This document shows positions 31,754 through 62,433 of a DNA stretch of 64,000 nucleotides, piece after piece. Origin of the DNA: Sulfurihydrogenibium azorense Az-Fu1 (lineage in GTDB: Bacteria; Aquificota; Aquificia; Aquificales; Hydrogenothermaceae); contig NC_012438.1 of assembly GCF_000021545.1 (NCBI RefSeq), forward strand, positions 1,176,003 to 1,240,002. The letters run 5' to 3'. The first letter of the stretch is position 1; every line of letters starts with the position of its first letter. Position numbers and translations under genes: made by a program. Below the pieces are notes generated by a model. That model saw only the letters and a program-made list of their open reading frames with translations, did no database searches and was not told the DNA's origin.

Positions 31754-31843
31754 GGATGGGTGTCCGAGTGGCCGAAGGAGCAGCACTGGAAATGCTGTGT
31801 ACGGGTAATCCCCGTACCGCGGGTTCGAATCCCGCCCCATCCG
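31754..31843 (+). tRNA. tRNA-Ser (anticodon GGA)
   Basis: A 90-nt class II tRNA. Acceptor GGATGGG (31754-31760) pairs with CCCATCC (31836-31842), discriminator G. The anticodon arm CAGCA-CTGGAAA-TGCTG reads GGA (Ser, UCC/UCU codons). A long variable arm (TACGGG/CCCGTA) and the T-loop GTTCGAATC follow. CCA is not encoded. Confidence 0.95.
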
Positions 31844-53823: not shown

Positions 53824-54348
53824 ATGGAAAGACCAACACCAAAACCGGTGGAAATTCAGGTACCACCAGATAGGTTTCTTGTATCGAAAACAGACCTAAA
53901 GGGTATTATTACCTATGCCAACCCTATCTTTTGTGAAATTGCTGGATACTCAGAAGAGGAACTTATCGGAAAACCACACAACATTGTAAGACATCCTGAT
54001 ATGCCAAGAACCGTATTTAAACTTCTGTGGGACACAATTCAAAAAGGGAGTGAAATATTTGCGTATGTAAAGAATATGGCAAAGGATGGCAGTTATTACT
54101 GGGTTTTTGCTCATGTAACGCCAACATTTGACAGTAGTGGGAAAATAGTTGGTTATACTTCTGATAGAAGACCTGTTTTAAATAGGGATATTCTTACAAA
54201 TGTTATAGAACCTCTCTATAGAGAACTAAAAGAGGCTGAAAGTAGAGGGGGATTGGAAGCAGGATTAAGACTTTTAGACGAAAAGTTAAAGCAAATGGGT
54301 AAATCTTATGAAGAGTTCATATTTACAATAACATTTAAGGAGGATTGA
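53824..54348 (+). CDS. Aer-like PAS-domain protein
   Basis: 174 residues. One PAS domain (~20-135) with Ile-Val-Arg-His-Pro-Asp-Met-Pro and Gly-Tyr-Tyr/Tyr-Tyr-Trp-Val type residues as in the FAD-binding PAS of Aer aerotaxis sensors. There is no receptor tip, so it probably signals through the adjacent cytoplasmic receptors. GGAGG precedes it and the following gene. Confidence 0.85.
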
Positions 54349-54350
54349 GG

Positions 54351-55805
54351 ATGAAAGAGTATAACAAACCATCTTCACTGACAATAGTACAGTATGCTAA
54401 CATGGTATCCATAGGTATATTTTCTTTTGCACTTGTTATAGAGGTTTATAAACACGGCTTTGATTTGATAAGAGTATTAAACATTATTAACTTTATAACA
54501 GCTTGGATAATCTTTGTAAACATTAGAAAAGTTCAAGGTTTTATAAAGAGGATATCTTACGTTCTAACAGAGGCAGAAAAAGGTAATCTTGAACCAAGGT
54601 TAATAAAAGAAAAAGAAAAAGGAGAGCTTTTAAAACTTGCCCATGATATAAACTACCTCTTAGACCAAGTTGATGTGTTTATAAGAGAGTTAAAAACACC
54701 AATAGAGTATGCTTCCCATAAAAAATATTGGAGAAAACCTGTAGATTTTGGGTTTACTGGAACGTTTAAGGCTGTTATGATTTCTTTGAAAAAACCTTTA
54801 AAAGCTATAGAGGAAAATGACAGATTTATAGAGAAGACACTTATGATTGAAGAGATGAGCAAATTAGGTGGTGGAATATCTGCAAATCCACAGATGATAC
54901 ATAGAGATTTAGACAGGATTGTGCAAGAAATACAAACTATAAAAAATGAAAGCATTAAAACCAAAGAAGTATCCGAAGAAGGTTTAAAAAAGATAGAAGA
55001 GATAGTACAGCATTTAAACCAAATTATAGACTCAATAAAACAGTCTTCTGAAGTTGTACTTAACCTTACAGGAAAAATATCTGATATTTCAGAAGTGGTT
55101 AACCTTATTAGAGAGATTGCGGACCAGACAAACTTACTTGCTTTAAATGCAGCGATAGAAGCAGCAAGGGCAGGAGAGATGGGAAGAGGGTTTGCAGTTG
55201 TTGCAGATGAGGTTAGAAAACTTGCAGAAAAAACACAAAAAGCAACTGAAGAGATAACAATGTCTATTACTCAGCTTCAAGCACAGAGTAAAGATGTGGC
55301 ACAAGAAACAGAGAAGATGGTAGATATGGCTAAGAATTCTATTGAAGAGATTAAATCGTTTAAAGAAGTAGCAAAAGCATTCCAAAGACAAGCAGACACA
55401 GTAAACAGATTAGCTATTTACATCTCAGATATAGCATACCTTTCTGCAAGAAAGTTAGACCACATAATATTTAAAAACAACACATACTTATCAGTATCTC
55501 AGGAAAAAATGGTCTTTAAGTTTACAGACCATCACAGCTGCAGATTCGGAAAGTGGTATTATTCACAAGAATCAGAAGAGTTTAAAAACTTCCCTACTTT
55601 CAAACAGATAGAACAGTATCACGCAGACTTCCATCAAACACTTTACCCTCTTATACAGCTTATAGAGAGAGGAGAAGACATTGTAAAACATAAACAGTTT
55701 ATATTTGACCACCTTCAAAGAGCTGAAGATGAATCTATAGAACTATTTAACTTGATAGATAAACTGGTAGAAGAAAGAAAACAACATCTATTTAAGGAGG
55801 TTTAG
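54351..55805 (+). CDS. Chemoreceptor with C-terminal zinc-binding (CZB) domain
   Basis: About 484 residues from ATG 54351 (GGAGG 7 nt upstream; a TTG at 54345 is too close). Two weak membrane helices (~20-60), a short linker, a signalling tip with the canonical Asn-Ala-Ala-Ile-Glu-Ala-Ala-Arg motif, and a CZB domain near the end with [10 protein letters not shown] plus later His residues that bind zinc. It is likely the partner of the PAS protein upstream. Confidence 0.9.
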
Positions 55806-55807
55806 AC

Positions 55808-57313
55808 ATGGGTTTATTTGGTGGAAGCAACAGAGAAGAAGTTGAAAGGCTCAAGCAGGAAATCGCAAGACTTGAAAGTCAGCTTCAAGAAAAGGAAAGG
55901 TCATTACAGCAGTTAACCAAACTCAAAGAAGAGTTAGATGTTTACAAAAAAGCACTTGACAATCTTACAGAAGAAGCGGTTATCCTTGCTACAACAGACT
56001 TTAAAGAAGGTAAAGCAGGAAACGATATTGTTTATCTAAACAGGAGAGCAAAAGAGATAGTAGATGCTTTATCACCTGATTTGAGAAGTATAGCAGGTAT
56101 GGAGATAAACTCTTCAAACATACTTGGAAAATCTATACATATTTTCCACAAAAATCCAGACAGGATAAAACAGCTCCTTAAAGATTTAAAACCGGGTGAG
56201 ATAAAGAAAAATGCAGATATACAAGTAGGAAACACAATTTTAGAATCTAATAGGACAACTATAACCGACGAGAAAGGAAACATCATTTACTACCAAACCA
56301 TTATGAAAGACGTAACTTACAGTAGATTTGTAGAAAGCGAGGTTTTAACATCTCTTGCTGAAACTGTAGCTATGAGTGCGTATAATGCATCAGTAGGAAC
56401 GGCATATCAGATTTTATTAGACGTTTATATAGACGACAACTTAAAGTCTGTTTTAGGGCAAACTATAGAGATATCAAAACAGGTAGAAAAAGTTAAAGAT
56501 AAAGCCGATTTTACCCAAAACAAAATAAAGGAGTCTGAGAGTGTTTTAGGTTTGATACTTGAAATATCAGAACAAACAAACCTTCTTTCTCTAAACGCAG
56601 CGATAGAAGCTGCAAGAGCAGGAGAGATGGGAAGAGGGTTTGCAGTAGTTGCAGATGAGGTTAGAAAACTTGCAGAAAGAACAGGAAAAAGCACAGAGGA
56701 AGTAAGAAAGATTATATCTTCTGTTATAAACGAAGTAGGATCAATGACAAGGGATGTAGATAACTCAGTTAAAGCCATAATATCAAACGCCAAAGACTTT
56801 GAATCTTCATTTGAAGAGATAAACAGTCTTACAGAAAAATCGGAAAAAGCATCCTTTGAAACATTTGAAAGGTTAGTAAACAACTTTGACATTTTAAGAC
56901 AACTTGCTCAAAAAACTACCTCTGAAAACTTAAAACTTTACATAAATCTTCTTGATAGAATATTAGACGACGCAAAATTTATGATTAACATAATAAAAGC
57001 TATAAAAAACAGAACTTATGTAGAAACTCAATCCCACAGAGAGTGTGCTTTGGGTAAGTGGTATTACTCTGTAGGTGTTAGCGATGTTAAAATGTGTGGA
57101 TTGGATGGGGAAAGATACTTTAGGGATTTAGAAACACCTCACGAAAAATATCATAATATAGCAAGGGAAGCAATGGAGTTTTTAAGACAAGGCAAGTATA
57201 AAGAGATGGTAGAGAAAGGTTTTGAAATGGTAGAATTTTCTAAACATATAATACAGGATATATTAAAGTTAGCCAAATCTTGTATTCAAGTAAACGGAGG
57301 TAGAGAGTTATGA
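55808..57313 (+). CDS. Cytoplasmic chemoreceptor with PAS-like and CZB domains
   Basis: 501 residues without a membrane segment. An N-terminal coiled coil (~8-45), a PAS-like region (~45-170), a signalling domain with [11 protein letters not shown], and a C-terminal CZB with [10 protein letters not shown]. It ends in an ATGA overlap with the mini-receptor. Confidence 0.88.
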
Positions 57314-57582
57314 AACATATAGAAAAGATAAATGAAATAAAAAAGATGGTAGAAAATATAAAAAAGATTGCAAAACAGAGTAATCTCTTGGCTTTAAACG
57401 CTGCTATTGAAGCTGCAAGGGTAGGAGAGATGGGGAAAGGTTTCTCGGTAGTTGCAGGAGAGTTTAGGAAGTTAGCTGATGACACTAACAAGATAGCAGC
57501 TGAAATAGGCATAATCGTAAACGAACTTCAACAAGAGTTAGAGAAGTTAGAGGAAAAGTGTAAGGAAAAGGATAACATTTAA
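57310..57582 (+). CDS. 90-residue mini-chemoreceptor (signalling tip only)
   Basis: Starts with ATG overlapping the previous stop (ATGA). It is nothing but the hairpin tip of a chemoreceptor: [14 protein letters not shown], Gly-Glu-Met-Gly-Lys-Gly-Phe and a coiled-coil tail. It has no sensor or membrane part. It may dimerise with or modulate neighbouring receptors, or be a relic kept by coupling. No stop or frameshift is seen inside it. Confidence 0.8.
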
Positions 57583-57597
57583 TTGGAGGGATTTAAT

Positions 57598-58545
57598 ATG
57601 AGTGATAACTACGGACTTCCGGATATACTAAAAACCGGACAGAATGAACTTGAGATAATAGACTTTAGAATATACGAAGATAGAGAAGAAGGACTATACG
57701 AGTGGATATTAGGAGTTAATGTAGCCAAAGTAAGAGAAGTTTTGAGGACTCCAACATTAACAAAGATTCCAAATATGCCATCTCAGGTAGAAGGTATGGC
57801 AGAGATAAGGGGAGAACTTATACCTGTTATCAGCCTTGCAAAATGGATGAACATTCACGAACCACCAGAAAGAAAAAGGTACCTACTTTTTATGGAATTC
57901 CTAAGGGAGAAAGTAGGAGTTATCATACACAGAGCCAACAGAATAAGAAGAATATCTTGGAAGGACATAAAAAAAGCACCTGAAGTCGTTAATCAAAGAT
58001 TAAATGGAAGGATTACAGGTGTAGTAGAAGTAGAAGATGGACTTTTGCTTATCCTTGACTTTGAAGGAATACTAAACGATATGAACTTACTTTACGTATT
58101 TAATGTACCTACTGAGTCAGAAAAAAAAGAAGCAAAAAAAAAGTTAAGAATACTTGTAGCAGAAGACTCTGCAGTAGCAAGAAAGATAATAAAAGACATT
58201 TTAGAGTCTGCAGGACACGAAGTTATACTTACAGAAAGTGGAAAGCAGGCGTGGGAAAAACTACAAGAGATTTACAACGAAGCTTCTGCGTACGGTAAAA
58301 GCGTTAGAGATTACATAGATTTAGTACTGACAGACATTGAGATGCCAGAGATGGATGGTCTTACATTGACAAATTTAATAAAAAACACTCCCGGATTTTT
58401 AAACCTACCTGTAATAGTAAACACAACACTTTCTGATGAAGCGAACCAACAAAAAGCAAAAAGCGTAGGAGCGGATGATTACTTAGTAAAGTTTGATGTA
58501 AAACATTTAATTGAACTGATAGAAAAGTATGGAGGTGGGCAATGA
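57598..58545 (+). CDS. cheV: Chemotaxis coupling protein CheV
   Basis: About 315 residues from ATG 57598 (GGAGG 8 nt upstream; a frame-equivalent TTG at 57583 overlaps that site). An N-terminal CheW-like domain (~15-170, Gly-Met-Ala-Glu-Ile-Arg-Gly-Glu-Leu-Ile-Pro-Val-Ile) and a C-terminal receiver domain (~180-315) with Asp in Val-Leu-Thr-Asp-Ile-Glu-Met-Pro. It contains runs of eight and nine A near 58121-58142 and is intact. It overlaps cheA by 4 bp. Confidence 0.93.
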   Translation: MSDNYGLPDILKTGQNELEIIDFRIYEDREEGLYEWILGVNVAKVREVLRTPTLTKIPNMPSQVEGMAEIRGELIPVISLAKWMNIHEPPERKRYLLFMEFLREKVGVIIHRANRIRRISWKDIKKAPEVVNQRLNGRITGVVEVEDGLLLILDFEGILNDMNLLYVFNVPTESEKKEAKKKLRILVAEDSAVARKIIKDILESAGHEVILTESGKQAWEKLQEIYNEASAYGKSVRDYIDLVLTDIEMPEMDGLTLTNLIKNTPGFLNLPVIVNTTLSDEANQQKAKSVGADDYLVKFDVKHLIELIEKYGGGQ

Positions 58546-59345
58546 TTCCTGATGAACTCAGAGAAATTTTTGAAGAGTTTGTAGTTGAAGCATCAGACCA
58601 CTTAGAAAATTTAGAAGCAGCACTACTAAGCCTTGAGAAAGATGCCGAGAATCAAGATTTAATAAACTCAGCCTTTAGAAGTATGCATACTCTTAAAGGT
58701 GGAGCTGGTTTTTTAGGGTTAACAAAAATAGTAGAAGTTGCCCACAAAGCAGAAGATATACTTGGAAAAGTAAAAGAGGGGAAATTAAAGATTAACTCAG
58801 AAATTCTTGACGTTTTACTTAAAGCCGTTGATTACATTAAAAACGCTATAAAAGACTATCAATCTGGAGAAGAACCGGAAGAACCTACAGATATTATAGA
58901 AAATCTTACTGAAATACTAGAAGGTAAACCAAAACACTCTCCATCTCAAGACAAAGAAGAGATAACCTTAGATAGACTGTTAGATAAGTATGGACTATCA
59001 CACTTAAAAGGACTTACTATAGAAGAAATACTTGAAGAGTTAGTTTTAATGCCACCAAACAAAAGACCTAAAGAGATAGTAGATTACATAGAAAATATAA
59101 TAAACGGTAAAACTGAAGCAAAACCTGTACCTACAGATATAATCCAAAAAGTAGAAGAAGAAACAGCTCAGAAGATGTTAGAAGCTATAGAAGAAGATAT
59201 AATTAAGAAAGATTTAGAAACACCAACAGTAGAAGAAAATAACGTAGAAGAGACAAAGATAGAAGAAACTAAAAAGGAAGATAAAAAACCACAGAAACAG
59301 CAGAAAAAAGATGAAGAAGAGAGAGTTTTAAGAATAGACGTTTAA
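58542..59345 (+). CDS. cheA: CheA N-terminal part (P1 phosphotransfer domain)
   Basis: 267 residues: the HPt domain with His49 in Arg-Ser-Met-His-Thr-Leu-Lys-Gly-Gly-Ala-Gly, a linker with a short repeat region, and a Glu/Lys-rich tail. It ends at an in-frame TAA (59343-59345) where homologues continue with a Glu before Lys-Ile-Glu-Asn-Leu-Met-Asn-Leu. Read together with the next entry it is one CheA. On its own it is a phosphotransfer domain without kinase. Confidence 0.85.
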   Translation: MIPDELREIFEEFVVEASDHLENLEAALLSLEKDAENQDLINSAFRSMHTLKGGAGFLGLTKIVEVAHKAEDILGKVKEGKLKINSEILDVLLKAVDYIKNAIKDYQSGEEPEEPTDIIENLTEILEGKPKHSPSQDKEEITLDRLLDKYGLSHLKGLTIEEILEELVLMPPNKRPKEIVDYIENIINGKTEAKPVPTDIIQKVEEETAQKMLEAIEEDIIKKDLETPTVEENNVEETKIEETKKEDKKPQKQQKKDEEERVLRIDV

Positions 59346-59360
59346 AAGATAGAAAACCTT

Positions 59361-60503
59361 ATGAACCTTGTAGGAGAGTTAGTTTTAGACAGAAACAGAC
59401 TTTTAAGAAGTGTGCAGGAACTGACACAAAACATGACTTCAAACAAGTACATAGAAGAGATAGAATCAGTTGCATCATCTATAGACAAGATAGTAGGAGA
59501 TTTACAACTTGCAGTTATGAAAACCCGTATGCAACCAGTTAAAAGACTTTTCCAAAAGTTTACCAGAGTAGTAAGAGACCTTTCAAAGTTAGTTGGAAAA
59601 GAGGTAAACCTTATAATAGAAGGTGAAGACACAGAAATGGATAAATCTATCCTTGAAAGATTAGAAGAACCTTTAGTTCATCTTATAAGAAACGCTTTAG
59701 ACCATGGATTAGAAACTCCTGAAGAAAGAAAGAGACTTGGAAAACCACCTATCGGTAAATTGGTACTAAGAGCATACTATCAAGGAGATAGGGTTTATCT
59801 TGAAGTAGAAGATAATGGAAGAGGAATAGATCCAGCCAAAGTAGCTCAAAAAGCCATAGAAAAAGGAATAATAACAAAAGAACAACTGGAAAAGATGACA
59901 GAAAAAGAGATATTGCAACTTGTTTTCTTACCGGGCTTTTCAACTAAAGACAAAGTATCAGAGATATCCGGACGTGGTGTAGGAATGGATGCTGTAATGA
60001 ATACAGTTATAAACTTTAGAGGAACCATAGATATATGGAGTGAGAAAGGTAAGGGAACTAAGATATCTATGGCATTCCCATTAACAGTTGGAATAATAAG
60101 GTCTCTGCTTGTGTCTGTAAGTGGAAGAAGGTTTGCTATACCTATATTCTTAGTGACAGAAATTATTTCTGTGGAAAATGCAACAATAAAAACATTATCA
60201 GGAAAGCAGGTTTTACTCTTAAGAGAAAAAGCTTTACCACTTATAAACATATACGATATGTTAAAAGTCCCTCCATGTAAAACAGGATATATAATAGTAT
60301 GTCTAATTGGTAATCAAAGGGTGGCATTTACAGTAGAAGACCTTTTTGGAGATGAAGAGATAGTTGTAAAACCACTTGGGAAAATATTTGGAGATTTACA
60401 CGGCATATCAGGAGCTACTATAACAGGAGATGGTAAAATCGTTTTAATACTTGATTTGGTAGAACTTCTCAAGAATATAAATAGTAACGCTTTAAAAGTT
60501 TAG
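59361..60503 (+). CDS. cheA: CheA C-terminal part (dimerisation, kinase and CheW-like domains)
   Basis: Same frame as the N-terminal part, 15 nt beyond its TAA. It begins Met-Asn-Leu-Val-Gly-Glu-Leu-Val (P3 dimerisation helix), followed by the ATPase (N-box Leu-Ile-Arg-Asn-Ala-Leu-Asp-His-Gly; G1 Asp-Asn-Gly-Arg-Gly-Ile; G2 Gly-Arg-Gly-Val-Gly-Met) and a CheW-like P5 domain. No strong ribosome site precedes ATG 59361, so production would need readthrough or reinitiation. It could phosphorylate the separate HPt in trans if made. Confidence 0.85.
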   Translation: MNLVGELVLDRNRLLRSVQELTQNMTSNKYIEEIESVASSIDKIVGDLQLAVMKTRMQPVKRLFQKFTRVVRDLSKLVGKEVNLIIEGEDTEMDKSILERLEEPLVHLIRNALDHGLETPEERKRLGKPPIGKLVLRAYYQGDRVYLEVEDNGRGIDPAKVAQKAIEKGIITKEQLEKMTEKEILQLVFLPGFSTKDKVSEISGRGVGMDAVMNTVINFRGTIDIWSEKGKGTKISMAFPLTVGIIRSLLVSVSGRRFAIPIFLVTEIISVENATIKTLSGKQVLLLREKALPLINIYDMLKVPPCKTGYIIVCLIGNQRVAFTVEDLFGDEEIVVKPLGKIFGDLHGISGATITGDGKIVLILDLVELLKNINSNALKV

Positions 60504-60514
60504 GGGGGTAAGCT

Positions 60515-60988
60515 ATGAGTTTAGTTTTGTCATCTCAAAAAAAGCCAATAATATACGGACAAGATACATCTAAAATTTTAGAGTTCTTGGGGGTATACTT
60601 AGAAGATGAGTTTATAGGCATATCCCTCAAAAACGTTTTGGAGATATCCAAAATCTTAGAAATATTTCCCGTCCCACTAACTCAACACTATATAAAAGGT
60701 GTGATAAATCTTAGAGGTGAGATACTTCCTGTTGTGTCAGTGAAAGAGATGGTAGGGGTAAAAGAGACTAAAGAACCAACACGGCTTATAGTGTTAGAAA
60801 CAAACTTAGGTAAGTTGGCAATCCTTGTAGACTCTGTTTACGGTGTAATAAAAATCCCAGAAGATAACTTAGAGCCAAACCCAATGACAAGTATATACAG
60901 TGATTACCTTTCAAATGTAGCTTTAACACCAAAAGGATTTATAAGTATAATAGATTTAGACAAACTTTTTCCTGCAAGGGAAGAGTAA
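60515..60988 (+). CDS. cheW: Chemotaxis coupling protein CheW
   Basis: 157 residues of CheW fold; Tyr-Ile-Lys-Gly-Val-Ile-Asn-Leu-Arg-Gly-Glu-Ile-Leu-Pro-Val-Val matches the conserved receptor-contact region. The GGGGGT ribosome site is 8 nt from the ATG. It links receptors to CheA. Confidence 0.93.
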   Translation: MSLVLSSQKKPIIYGQDTSKILEFLGVYLEDEFIGISLKNVLEISKILEIFPVPLTQHYIKGVINLRGEILPVVSVKEMVGVKETKEPTRLIVLETNLGKLAILVDSVYGVIKIPEDNLEPNPMTSIYSDYLSNVALTPKGFISIIDLDKLFPAREE

Positions 60989-60995
60989 AGGGTAA

Positions 60996-61469
60996 ATGTT
61001 TATAGTGAAAATTATGGAATTTATAAACAGTAAAAGAATGGATTTATTTCAAAGTTTGTTTTTTAACCTTTATGAGAAGTATAACGGAGACGCAGACCAC
61101 TTTGTAGAAGAATGGTTTAGAAGGTATACTTATGCAACACTAAAAACATACTTTAAAGAGGATTTGTTTAGAAACGATTTAGACGAGTTTTTTAATAAAA
61201 ATAAAAATGTTATAAAGGCTTACGTAAAGGCTTACTGGAGTTTTTGCAATGACCCAAACGCAAGGCCACACCATATAAAAGTTGCGATGGATTTCTTTGG
61301 AATAAAAGAACTTTCAGAAAAAGAGCTTAAGGAAAAGTTCAGAGAAATGGTGAAGTTGTACCATCCTGACATCCATCCGAACAAAAAAGAAGCAACGTTA
61401 AAAATGATGGAAATAAACCATCACTACCAGATTTTAAAAGCATTTTTAGAAAAGTACGGAGGAGAGTAA
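60996..61469 (+). CDS. J-domain protein in the chemotaxis cluster
   Basis: 157 residues. The C-terminal ~60 residues are a J-domain with Tyr-His-Pro-Asp-Ile-His-Pro (HPD motif) after a basic helix. The N-terminal ~95 residues are helical and unknown. It lies between cheW and cheZ, overlapping the cheZ start by 1 bp, so a DnaK-linked role in the chemotaxis or flagellar apparatus is possible but unproven. Confidence 0.8.
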   Translation: MFIVKIMEFINSKRMDLFQSLFFNLYEKYNGDADHFVEEWFRRYTYATLKTYFKEDLFRNDLDEFFNKNKNVIKAYVKAYWSFCNDPNARPHHIKVAMDFFGIKELSEKELKEKFREMVKLYHPDIHPNKKEATLKMMEINHHYQILKAFLEKYGGE

Positions 61470-62026
61470 TGGAAGACCTAAAGACTGTTATAAAGAGCAT
61501 ACTTGAGGAGGTAAAGATACTTGAAGAGAAGATAGAAGAAACTGCAAAAGTTGCCACACACACAACAAAAGTCATAACACCTACAGCTACAGAAAGTCTT
61601 AGAGAAGTGATAAAATTCAGTGAAGAGAGTGCAAACAACATTATACAGCAGATAGACAAAGTAGAAGAAAACTGTAAAGTAATAGACAAAACAGTAGATG
61701 AATTGTTAAATCTAAATCCTGTAAGTACAATCAAAGAAAAGTTAAGTTTAATAAAAGAAAAAAATAAAGATAACATGAATATACTAATAAAAGTTTATGA
61801 ATTGTTTTCTTTTCAAGACCTTATGGCACAACAGATAAAAGAAGTTATAAATATACTTGAAGAAACAAAGAAAAATCTATTAAAATTTGCAGCTACATCT
61901 ATAGAAATGTCTTCTTTATCAGAAGAAGATAAGAAAAAAGCAGTTGGAAAAGTTCACGAGTTTATCACTGGAGATAGAATTAACCAACAAGACGTAGACA
62001 AACTTTTAGAAGAATTAGGATTATAA
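61469..62026 (+). CDS. CheZ-like CheY phosphatase
   Basis: 185 residues, a long helical hairpin. Ser-Phe-Gln-Asp-Leu-Met-Ala-Gln-Gln-Ile is the CheZ active-site region, and the last residues Asn-Gln-Gln-Asp-Val-Asp-Lys-Leu-Leu-Glu-Glu-Leu-Gly-Leu match the C-terminal CheY-binding peptide of CheZ. It would speed loss of phosphate from CheY. cheY follows 14 bp later. Confidence 0.85.
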   Translation: MEDLKTVIKSILEEVKILEEKIEETAKVATHTTKVITPTATESLREVIKFSEESANNIIQQIDKVEENCKVIDKTVDELLNLNPVSTIKEKLSLIKEKNKDNMNILIKVYELFSFQDLMAQQIKEVINILEETKKNLLKFAATSIEMSSLSEEDKKKAVGKVHEFITGDRINQQDVDKLLEELGL

Positions 62027-62040
62027 AGGAGGTTAACGAA

Positions 62041-62433
62041 ATGGGATTTCCTTCAGATGCTAAAATTTTAACAGTAGACGATATGGCTACAATGAGAAAG
62101 ATAATAAAAAGTCTTTTAACACAACTGGGATATACAAACGTTGATGAAGCTGAAAACGGAAAAGAGGCTTTAGCAAAGTTAAAACAACAAAAATACGACT
62201 TAGTTTTATTAGACTGGAATATGCCAGAGATGGATGGAATCACATTACTACAAGAAATAAAAAAAGACCCAGATTTGAAAAATATACCGGTTATAATGGT
62301 TACAGCTGAGGCAAAAAAAGAAAATGTATTACAAGCTATACAAACTGGAGCCAATAATTACATTGTTAAGCCTTTCACAGCTGAAACTTTAAAAGAAAAA
62401 ATGGATAAAGTTTGGGCACAACTACAGGGTTAA
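62041..62433 (+). CDS. cheY: Chemotaxis response regulator CheY
   Basis: 130 residues, single receiver domain. Acid pair Asp-Asp at ~13-14, phospho-acceptor Asp58 in Val-Leu-Leu-Asp-Trp-Asn-Met-Pro, Thr in Val-Thr-Ala-Glu and Lys in Val-Lys-Pro-Phe. Phosphorylated by CheA it binds the motor switch. GGAGG precedes the ATG. Confidence 0.96.
   Translation: MGFPSDAKILTVDDMATMRKIIKSLLTQLGYTNVDEAENGKEALAKLKQQKYDLVLLDWNMPEMDGITLLQEIKKDPDLKNIPVIMVTAEAKKENVLQAIQTGANNYIVKPFTAETLKEKMDKVWAQLQG

What the first reader, a model, noticed from the sequence alone, without database searches (positions are those of the whole stretch)
59320..59380. cheA split by an in-frame TAA between the phosphotransfer and kinase domains
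The TAA at 59343-59345 stands where other CheA proteins have a Glu codon (GAA to TAA is one change), and the same frame resumes and continues for 380 residues. The rest of the chemotaxis cluster looks intact. A separate HPt domain can in principle be phosphorylated in trans, so this may be a natural split rather than simple loss.
Basis: partly seen in the sequence, partly recalled or inferred. Interest (0 to 1): 0.65.

Follow-up and report, generated by a model that had tools for sequence, protein, structure and literature searches.

The report
Chemotaxis kinase gene broken by stop
In this heat-loving bacterium the only gene for the central chemotaxis kinase CheA carries one stop codon that none of its relatives has, most likely a recent mutation that cripples chemotaxis rather than a purposeful two-part kinase.

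Summary
The stop is real: TAA at 59343-59345 lies in frame in the genome's only cheA. It separates the HPt (P1) domain and linker (267 aa) from the P3-P4-P5 kinase core (385 codons, first ATG at 59361). None of 29 aligned Aquificota CheA genes has a stop at this codon, and a pattern scan of about 85,000 bacterial and archaeal genomes found no other. Among 148 ORFs aligned with the nearest relative, it is the only mid-gene stop on this side. Both halves show very low dN/dS and keep their catalytic motifs, so the stop is young. The restart ATG has almost no Shine-Dalgarno pairing (-1.8 kcal/mol; most neighbours -10 to -14), and the DNA around it is otherwise unchanged from the nearest relative. 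No stop-suppressor tRNA was found. Chemotaxis genes are decaying or gone in several relatives. Best reading: a recent nonsense mutation that abolishes or strongly lowers CheA function. HPt phosphorylation in trans could leave residual activity, but nothing indicates an evolved split. A sequencing error cannot be excluded.

The parts
58542..59345 (+). cheA 5' part: HPt (P1) domain with phospho-acceptor motif HTLKGG (His at residue 49), then linker/P2-like region; 267 aa ending at the TAA
   Evidence: strong Shine-Dalgarno -14.1 kcal/mol
58563..58844 (+). HPt domain (PF01627)
   Evidence: E 7.5e-20
59343..59345 (+). in-frame TAA at codon 268; CAA (Gln) in the nearest relatives
59346..60503 (+). 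cheA 3' part: P3-P4-P5 kinase core, 385 codons after the stop, frame unbroken
   Evidence: PDB match 1b3q/3ja6 E about 1e-99
59361..59363 (+). first possible ATG restart, 15 nt after the TAA, almost no Shine-Dalgarno pairing
   Evidence: -1.8 kcal/mol
59346..59525 (+). P3 dimerisation domain (PF02895), missing its first residues because of the stop
   Evidence: profile positions 10-68 of 68
59664..60086 (+). P4 ATPase domain (PF02518); motifs HLIRNALDHG, DNGRGI and GRGVGMD present
60105..60476 (+). P5 CheW-like domain (PF01584)
57598..58545 (+). intact CheW + receiver (CheV-like) gene directly upstream
60515..60988 (+). intact cheW directly downstream
61469..62026 (+). intact cheZ-like phosphatase gene
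62041..62433 (+). intact cheY, single receiver domain

Best explanation
The site is a recent, lineage- or strain-specific nonsense mutation (CAA Gln268 to TAA) in the genome's only cheA. The HPt/linker fragment has a strong start signal and ends at the stop, before P3 (shown by the sequence). The P3-P4-P5 core can be made only by rare reinitiation at ATG 59361 or by rare readthrough of UAA (inferred). CheY phosphorylation should therefore be absent or strongly reduced, leaving cells flagellated but non-chemotactic or weakly chemotactic (inferred). Any residual function would come from the free HPt fragment being phosphorylated in trans by a small amount of restarted core (inferred; precedent known in E. 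coli and Rhodobacter).
For: One cheA in the genome. The nearest relative, G006 (94% aa identity), and G012, G004 and G005 all have CAA; all 29 other aligned genes have a sense codon. A survey of 136 Aquificota genomes found cheA in 85 and no other with this stop. A degenerate-codon scan of about 85,000 genomes found one match, and it reads TGG, while the same pattern finds the window site. It is the only mid-gene stop in this genome among 148 ORFs aligned with G006. The restart ATG has Shine-Dalgarno -1.8 kcal/mol, against -10 to -14 for most neighbours. From 59334 to 59378 the DNA matches G006 except for the stop-making base. No suppressor anticodon was found among about 39 tRNAs. Chemotaxis genes decay repeatedly nearby: G002 keeps fliG and flagellin but lacks cheA and cheW and has broken cheY and cheZ remnants; G019 has cheA, CheV-like and receptor genes broken in frame; G001 and G003 lack cheA and fliG.
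Against: No second lesion has accumulated. All catalytic motifs survive and dN/dS stays very low in both halves, so relaxed selection is not visible. That fits a very young mutation, but also a still-functional gene or a base-calling error. The flagellar and other che genes examined look intact.
Confidence: 0.68

Rival explanations
1. Functional bipartite CheA: the two ORFs are translated separately by termination-reinitiation, and the free HPt protein is phosphorylated in trans by the P3-P5 kinase core.
For: P3-P5 matches a construct crystallised on its own (T. maritima CheA, 1b3q). Liberated HPt is described as functional, and CheA with its HPt encoded in a separate gene of the same operon has been found in a genome survey (PMC10782961). 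Post-termination ribosomes can move over 40 nt to a new start (PMC5972666). Both halves are conserved.
Against: There is no Shine-Dalgarno at the restart ATG, and the cited work finds reinitiation depends on SD-like sequences. There is no adaptation around the site and the stop is absent from all relatives. The restart would also remove the first residues of the P3 helix.
Confidence: 0.13
2. Sequencing or assembly error: the true codon is CAA.
For: Everything else about the gene looks functional, and a single base call is at stake.
Against: The genome is one contig, 99.99% complete, and no other mid-gene stop occurs among 148 compared ORFs, so the sequence is not generally poor. Raw reads were not available.
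Confidence: 0.14
3. Programmed or suppressor-driven readthrough of TAA gives some full-length CheA.
For: The stop differs by one first-position base from a Gln codon, so near-cognate misreading by tRNA-Gln is conceivable (general knowledge).
Against: No tRNA with a stop anticodon was found. The bases after the stop (AAGATA) are not a readthrough context known to me. No other mid-gene stop in 148 compared ORFs suggests genome-wide suppression. A single frameshift could not restore the frame, because the downstream frame is the same as the upstream one.
Confidence: 0.05

Closest known systems
Canonical CheA (P1-P3-P4-P5) of Thermotoga maritima, E. coli and other Aquificota
   Same: Same domains, order, catalytic motifs and operon context
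   Different: A stop codon separates P1/linker from P3-P5; Pfam finds no P2 domain at the threshold used
[quoted passage not shown]
   Same: HPt and kinase core on separate ORFs of one operon
   Different: Those are separate genes, and the CheA3/CheA4 pair occurs in some 20 other genomes; here there is no ribosome-binding site and no relative shares the split
Liberated P1 fragments of E. coli CheA (Garzon and Parkinson 1996, cited in PMC10782961 and PMC10653900)
   Same: A free P1 piece plus a P3-P5 core, in principle able to phosphorylate in trans
   Different: An engineered, well-expressed situation; here expression of the core is doubtful
Decaying che clusters of related genomes (G019, G002)
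   Same: Loss-of-function lesions in chemotaxis genes
   Different: There the decay is advanced, with several frameshifts or missing genes; here there is one lesion

Membership tests
CheA histidine kinase | HPt domain with phospho-acceptor His | tested here: met
   PF01627 7.5e-20; HTLKGG at residue 49
CheA histidine kinase | P3 dimerisation, P4 ATPase and P5 CheW-like domains with N and G boxes | tested here: met
   PF02895, PF02518, PF01584; motifs present
CheA histidine kinase | One continuous reading frame (canonical form) | tested here: not met
   TAA at 59343-59345
Evolved bipartite (split) CheA | Kinase core has its own translation start signal | tested here: not met
   -1.8 kcal/mol at ATG 59361, most neighbours -10 to -14
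Evolved bipartite (split) CheA | Split conserved in related genomes | tested here: not met
Evolved bipartite (split) CheA | Both proteins made and act together | not testable with these tools
   needs protein and motility data
Stop-codon readthrough gene | Suppressor tRNA or known stimulatory context | tested here: not met
   no stop anticodon among about 39 tRNAs; context judged from the sequence only
Nonsense-mutation pseudogene | Intact sense codon in orthologues, lesion private to this lineage | tested here: met
Nonsense-mutation pseudogene | Relaxed selection after the lesion | tested here: inconclusive
   4 against 1 polarised nonsynonymous changes in P3-P5 (this lineage against G006), Fisher p = 0.15

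The most novel reading that the evidence does not exclude
A nascent two-protein CheA caught at birth: one C-to-T change split the kinase at the P1/P3 boundary, and leaky reinitiation at a start without a Shine-Dalgarno gives enough core kinase for trans phosphorylation of free HPt, with chemotaxis still working, perhaps at a different gain.
Probability: 0.08. Interest if true: 0.55.

Novelty: new member of a known kind. Interest (0 to 1): 0.22.

Why it matters
If confirmed, the sequenced strain is probably non-chemotactic or nearly so, which matters to anyone using it as a model for thermophile behaviour. It also places one more member of the family on a path of repeated chemotaxis loss. If the two pieces still worked together, it would be a one-mutation natural example of how bipartite CheA systems can arise.

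Tried and rejected
GAA as the ancestral codon: rejected, CAA in the four closest genomes. A second cheA that could compensate: none. A suppressor tRNA: none found. Frameshift rescue around GTTTAAAAG: a single slip cannot restore the frame. Recurrence in other phyla: the degenerate pattern scan gave only a TGG case; the pattern covers CheA genes with this motif only. Possible stops in the second cheA type of more distant genera: these were ordinary C-terminal stops where checked. G068 seemed to start at residue 271, but its contig simply ends there. D425N in the G1 box looked like a damaging change, since all 29 aligned sequences have Asp, but an intact Clostridium CheA also has DNGRG, so it is weak evidence. 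Generally poor sequence quality: not supported. I did not fold the fragments, because a close solved structure exists. Literature searches for motility or genome notes on this species gave nothing usable.

Full report
What is there. The TAA at 59343-59345 is real and in frame. Upstream, 58542-59345 encodes 267 aa with an HPt domain and the phospho-acceptor motif HTLKGG. Downstream, the frame stays open for 385 codons and carries the P3, P4 and P5 domains. The core aligns from its first residue after the stop with the crystallised P3-P5 construct of T. maritima CheA. This is the only cheA in the single-contig, 1,640,877-base genome. The contig size, compared with my recollection, suggests Sulfurihydrogenibium azorense Az-Fu1, but no tool named the organism.

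What the codon was. In the nearest genome (G006, 94% identical protein) and in G012, G004 and G005 the codon is CAA, Gln. More distant genera have Gln, Glu, Asp, Asn or Lys. All 29 other aligned genes have a sense codon. Among 136 Aquificota genomes, 85 have cheA and none shares this stop; G019 and G085 are broken by frameshifts elsewhere in the gene, G085 next to unresolved bases. A degenerate DNA pattern for the motif with a stop (or TGG) at this codon, run over about 85,000 genomes, returned only an intact Clostridium gene with TGG, while it does find the window site.

How old, and is selection relaxed. Against G006, dS is about 0.55 and dN/dS is 0.037 for P1, 0.15 for the linker and 0.020 for P3-P5. 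Polarised changes give a weak, non-significant excess of nonsynonymous changes in P3-P5 on this lineage (4 against 1, p = 0.15). The stop is thus young compared with the split from G006. I compared 224 kb around the gene with G006 (148 ORFs at 70% identity or more). Every other stop difference on this genome's side lies within a few codons of an end or before the true start. Apart from one insertion/deletion difference (539 against 187 codons, not pursued), the cheA stop is the only mid-gene lesion.

Could it be a working split? In principle yes. A genome survey of CheA describes HPt domains encoded as separate genes in the same operon and calls liberated HPt functional; Rhodobacter sphaeroides CheA3/CheA4 divide the tasks (PMC10782961). 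But the only nearby start, ATG 59361, has -1.8 kcal/mol of Shine-Dalgarno pairing, while most neighbouring genes have -10 to -14 (fliG and the DnaJ-domain gene are exceptions). Bacterial reinitiation after termination depends on SD-like sequences (PMC5972666). From 59334 to 59378 the DNA equals that of G006 except for the stop-making base, so nothing has evolved to support a second start. An in-frame ATG at 59637 has a better SD (-9.2) but would omit P3 dimerisation.

Readthrough. About 39 tRNA genes were found and no stop anticodon was seen; one tRNA-Gln (anticodon ttg) was found. One of the 39, at window 31754-31843, was not typed individually. Basal misreading of UAA is possible but expected to be small (general knowledge).

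Context. The surrounding chemotaxis genes (CheV-like, cheW, cheZ, cheY) and fliG are intact and close to those of G006, and flagellin is present. Relatives show repeated loss. G002 has fliG and flagellin but no cheA or cheW, and broken cheY and cheZ remnants near a contig start. G019 has broken cheA, CheV-like and receptor genes, and its flagellin match has a stop. G001 and G003 lack cheA and fliG. Some of these are draft assemblies, so individual frameshifts there may be errors.

Conclusion. The simplest account is a recent nonsense mutation, natural or arisen in culture, that abolishes or strongly reduces CheA activity (0.68). A sequencing error (0.14) and a functional bipartite kinase (0.13) remain possible. 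From memory, the species was described as motile; a cheA loss does not stop swimming, so this does not decide between them.

Noticed in passing
window 57310-57582: A 90-aa stand-alone receptor tip (only the MCP signalling hairpin) with a strong ribosome-binding site, 95.5% conserved in G006; possibly a soluble mini-receptor that modulates CheA/CheW.
   Followed up: partly
window 53824-55805: A PAS protein (174 aa) and a receptor without PAS (486 aa) overlap by 4 bases, as if an Aer-type receptor were encoded in two genes; the same arrangement is in G006.
   Followed up: partly
window 60996-61469: A small protein with a C-terminal DnaJ domain sits between cheW and cheZ, and is kept in G006 and G019.
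   Followed up: no
window 55808-57313: A 501-aa receptor present here but with no close counterpart at the matching place in G006.
   Followed up: no
L102 (G002:C59) 1-800 and L103: A genus member with fliG and flagellin but without cheA or cheW, with frameshifted cheY and cheZ remnants: swimming without chemotaxis, or decay in progress.
   Followed up: partly
L104 (G019:C26): Most chemotaxis genes of this relative are broken in frame, and its flagellin match has a stop; decay or a poor assembly.
   Followed up: partly
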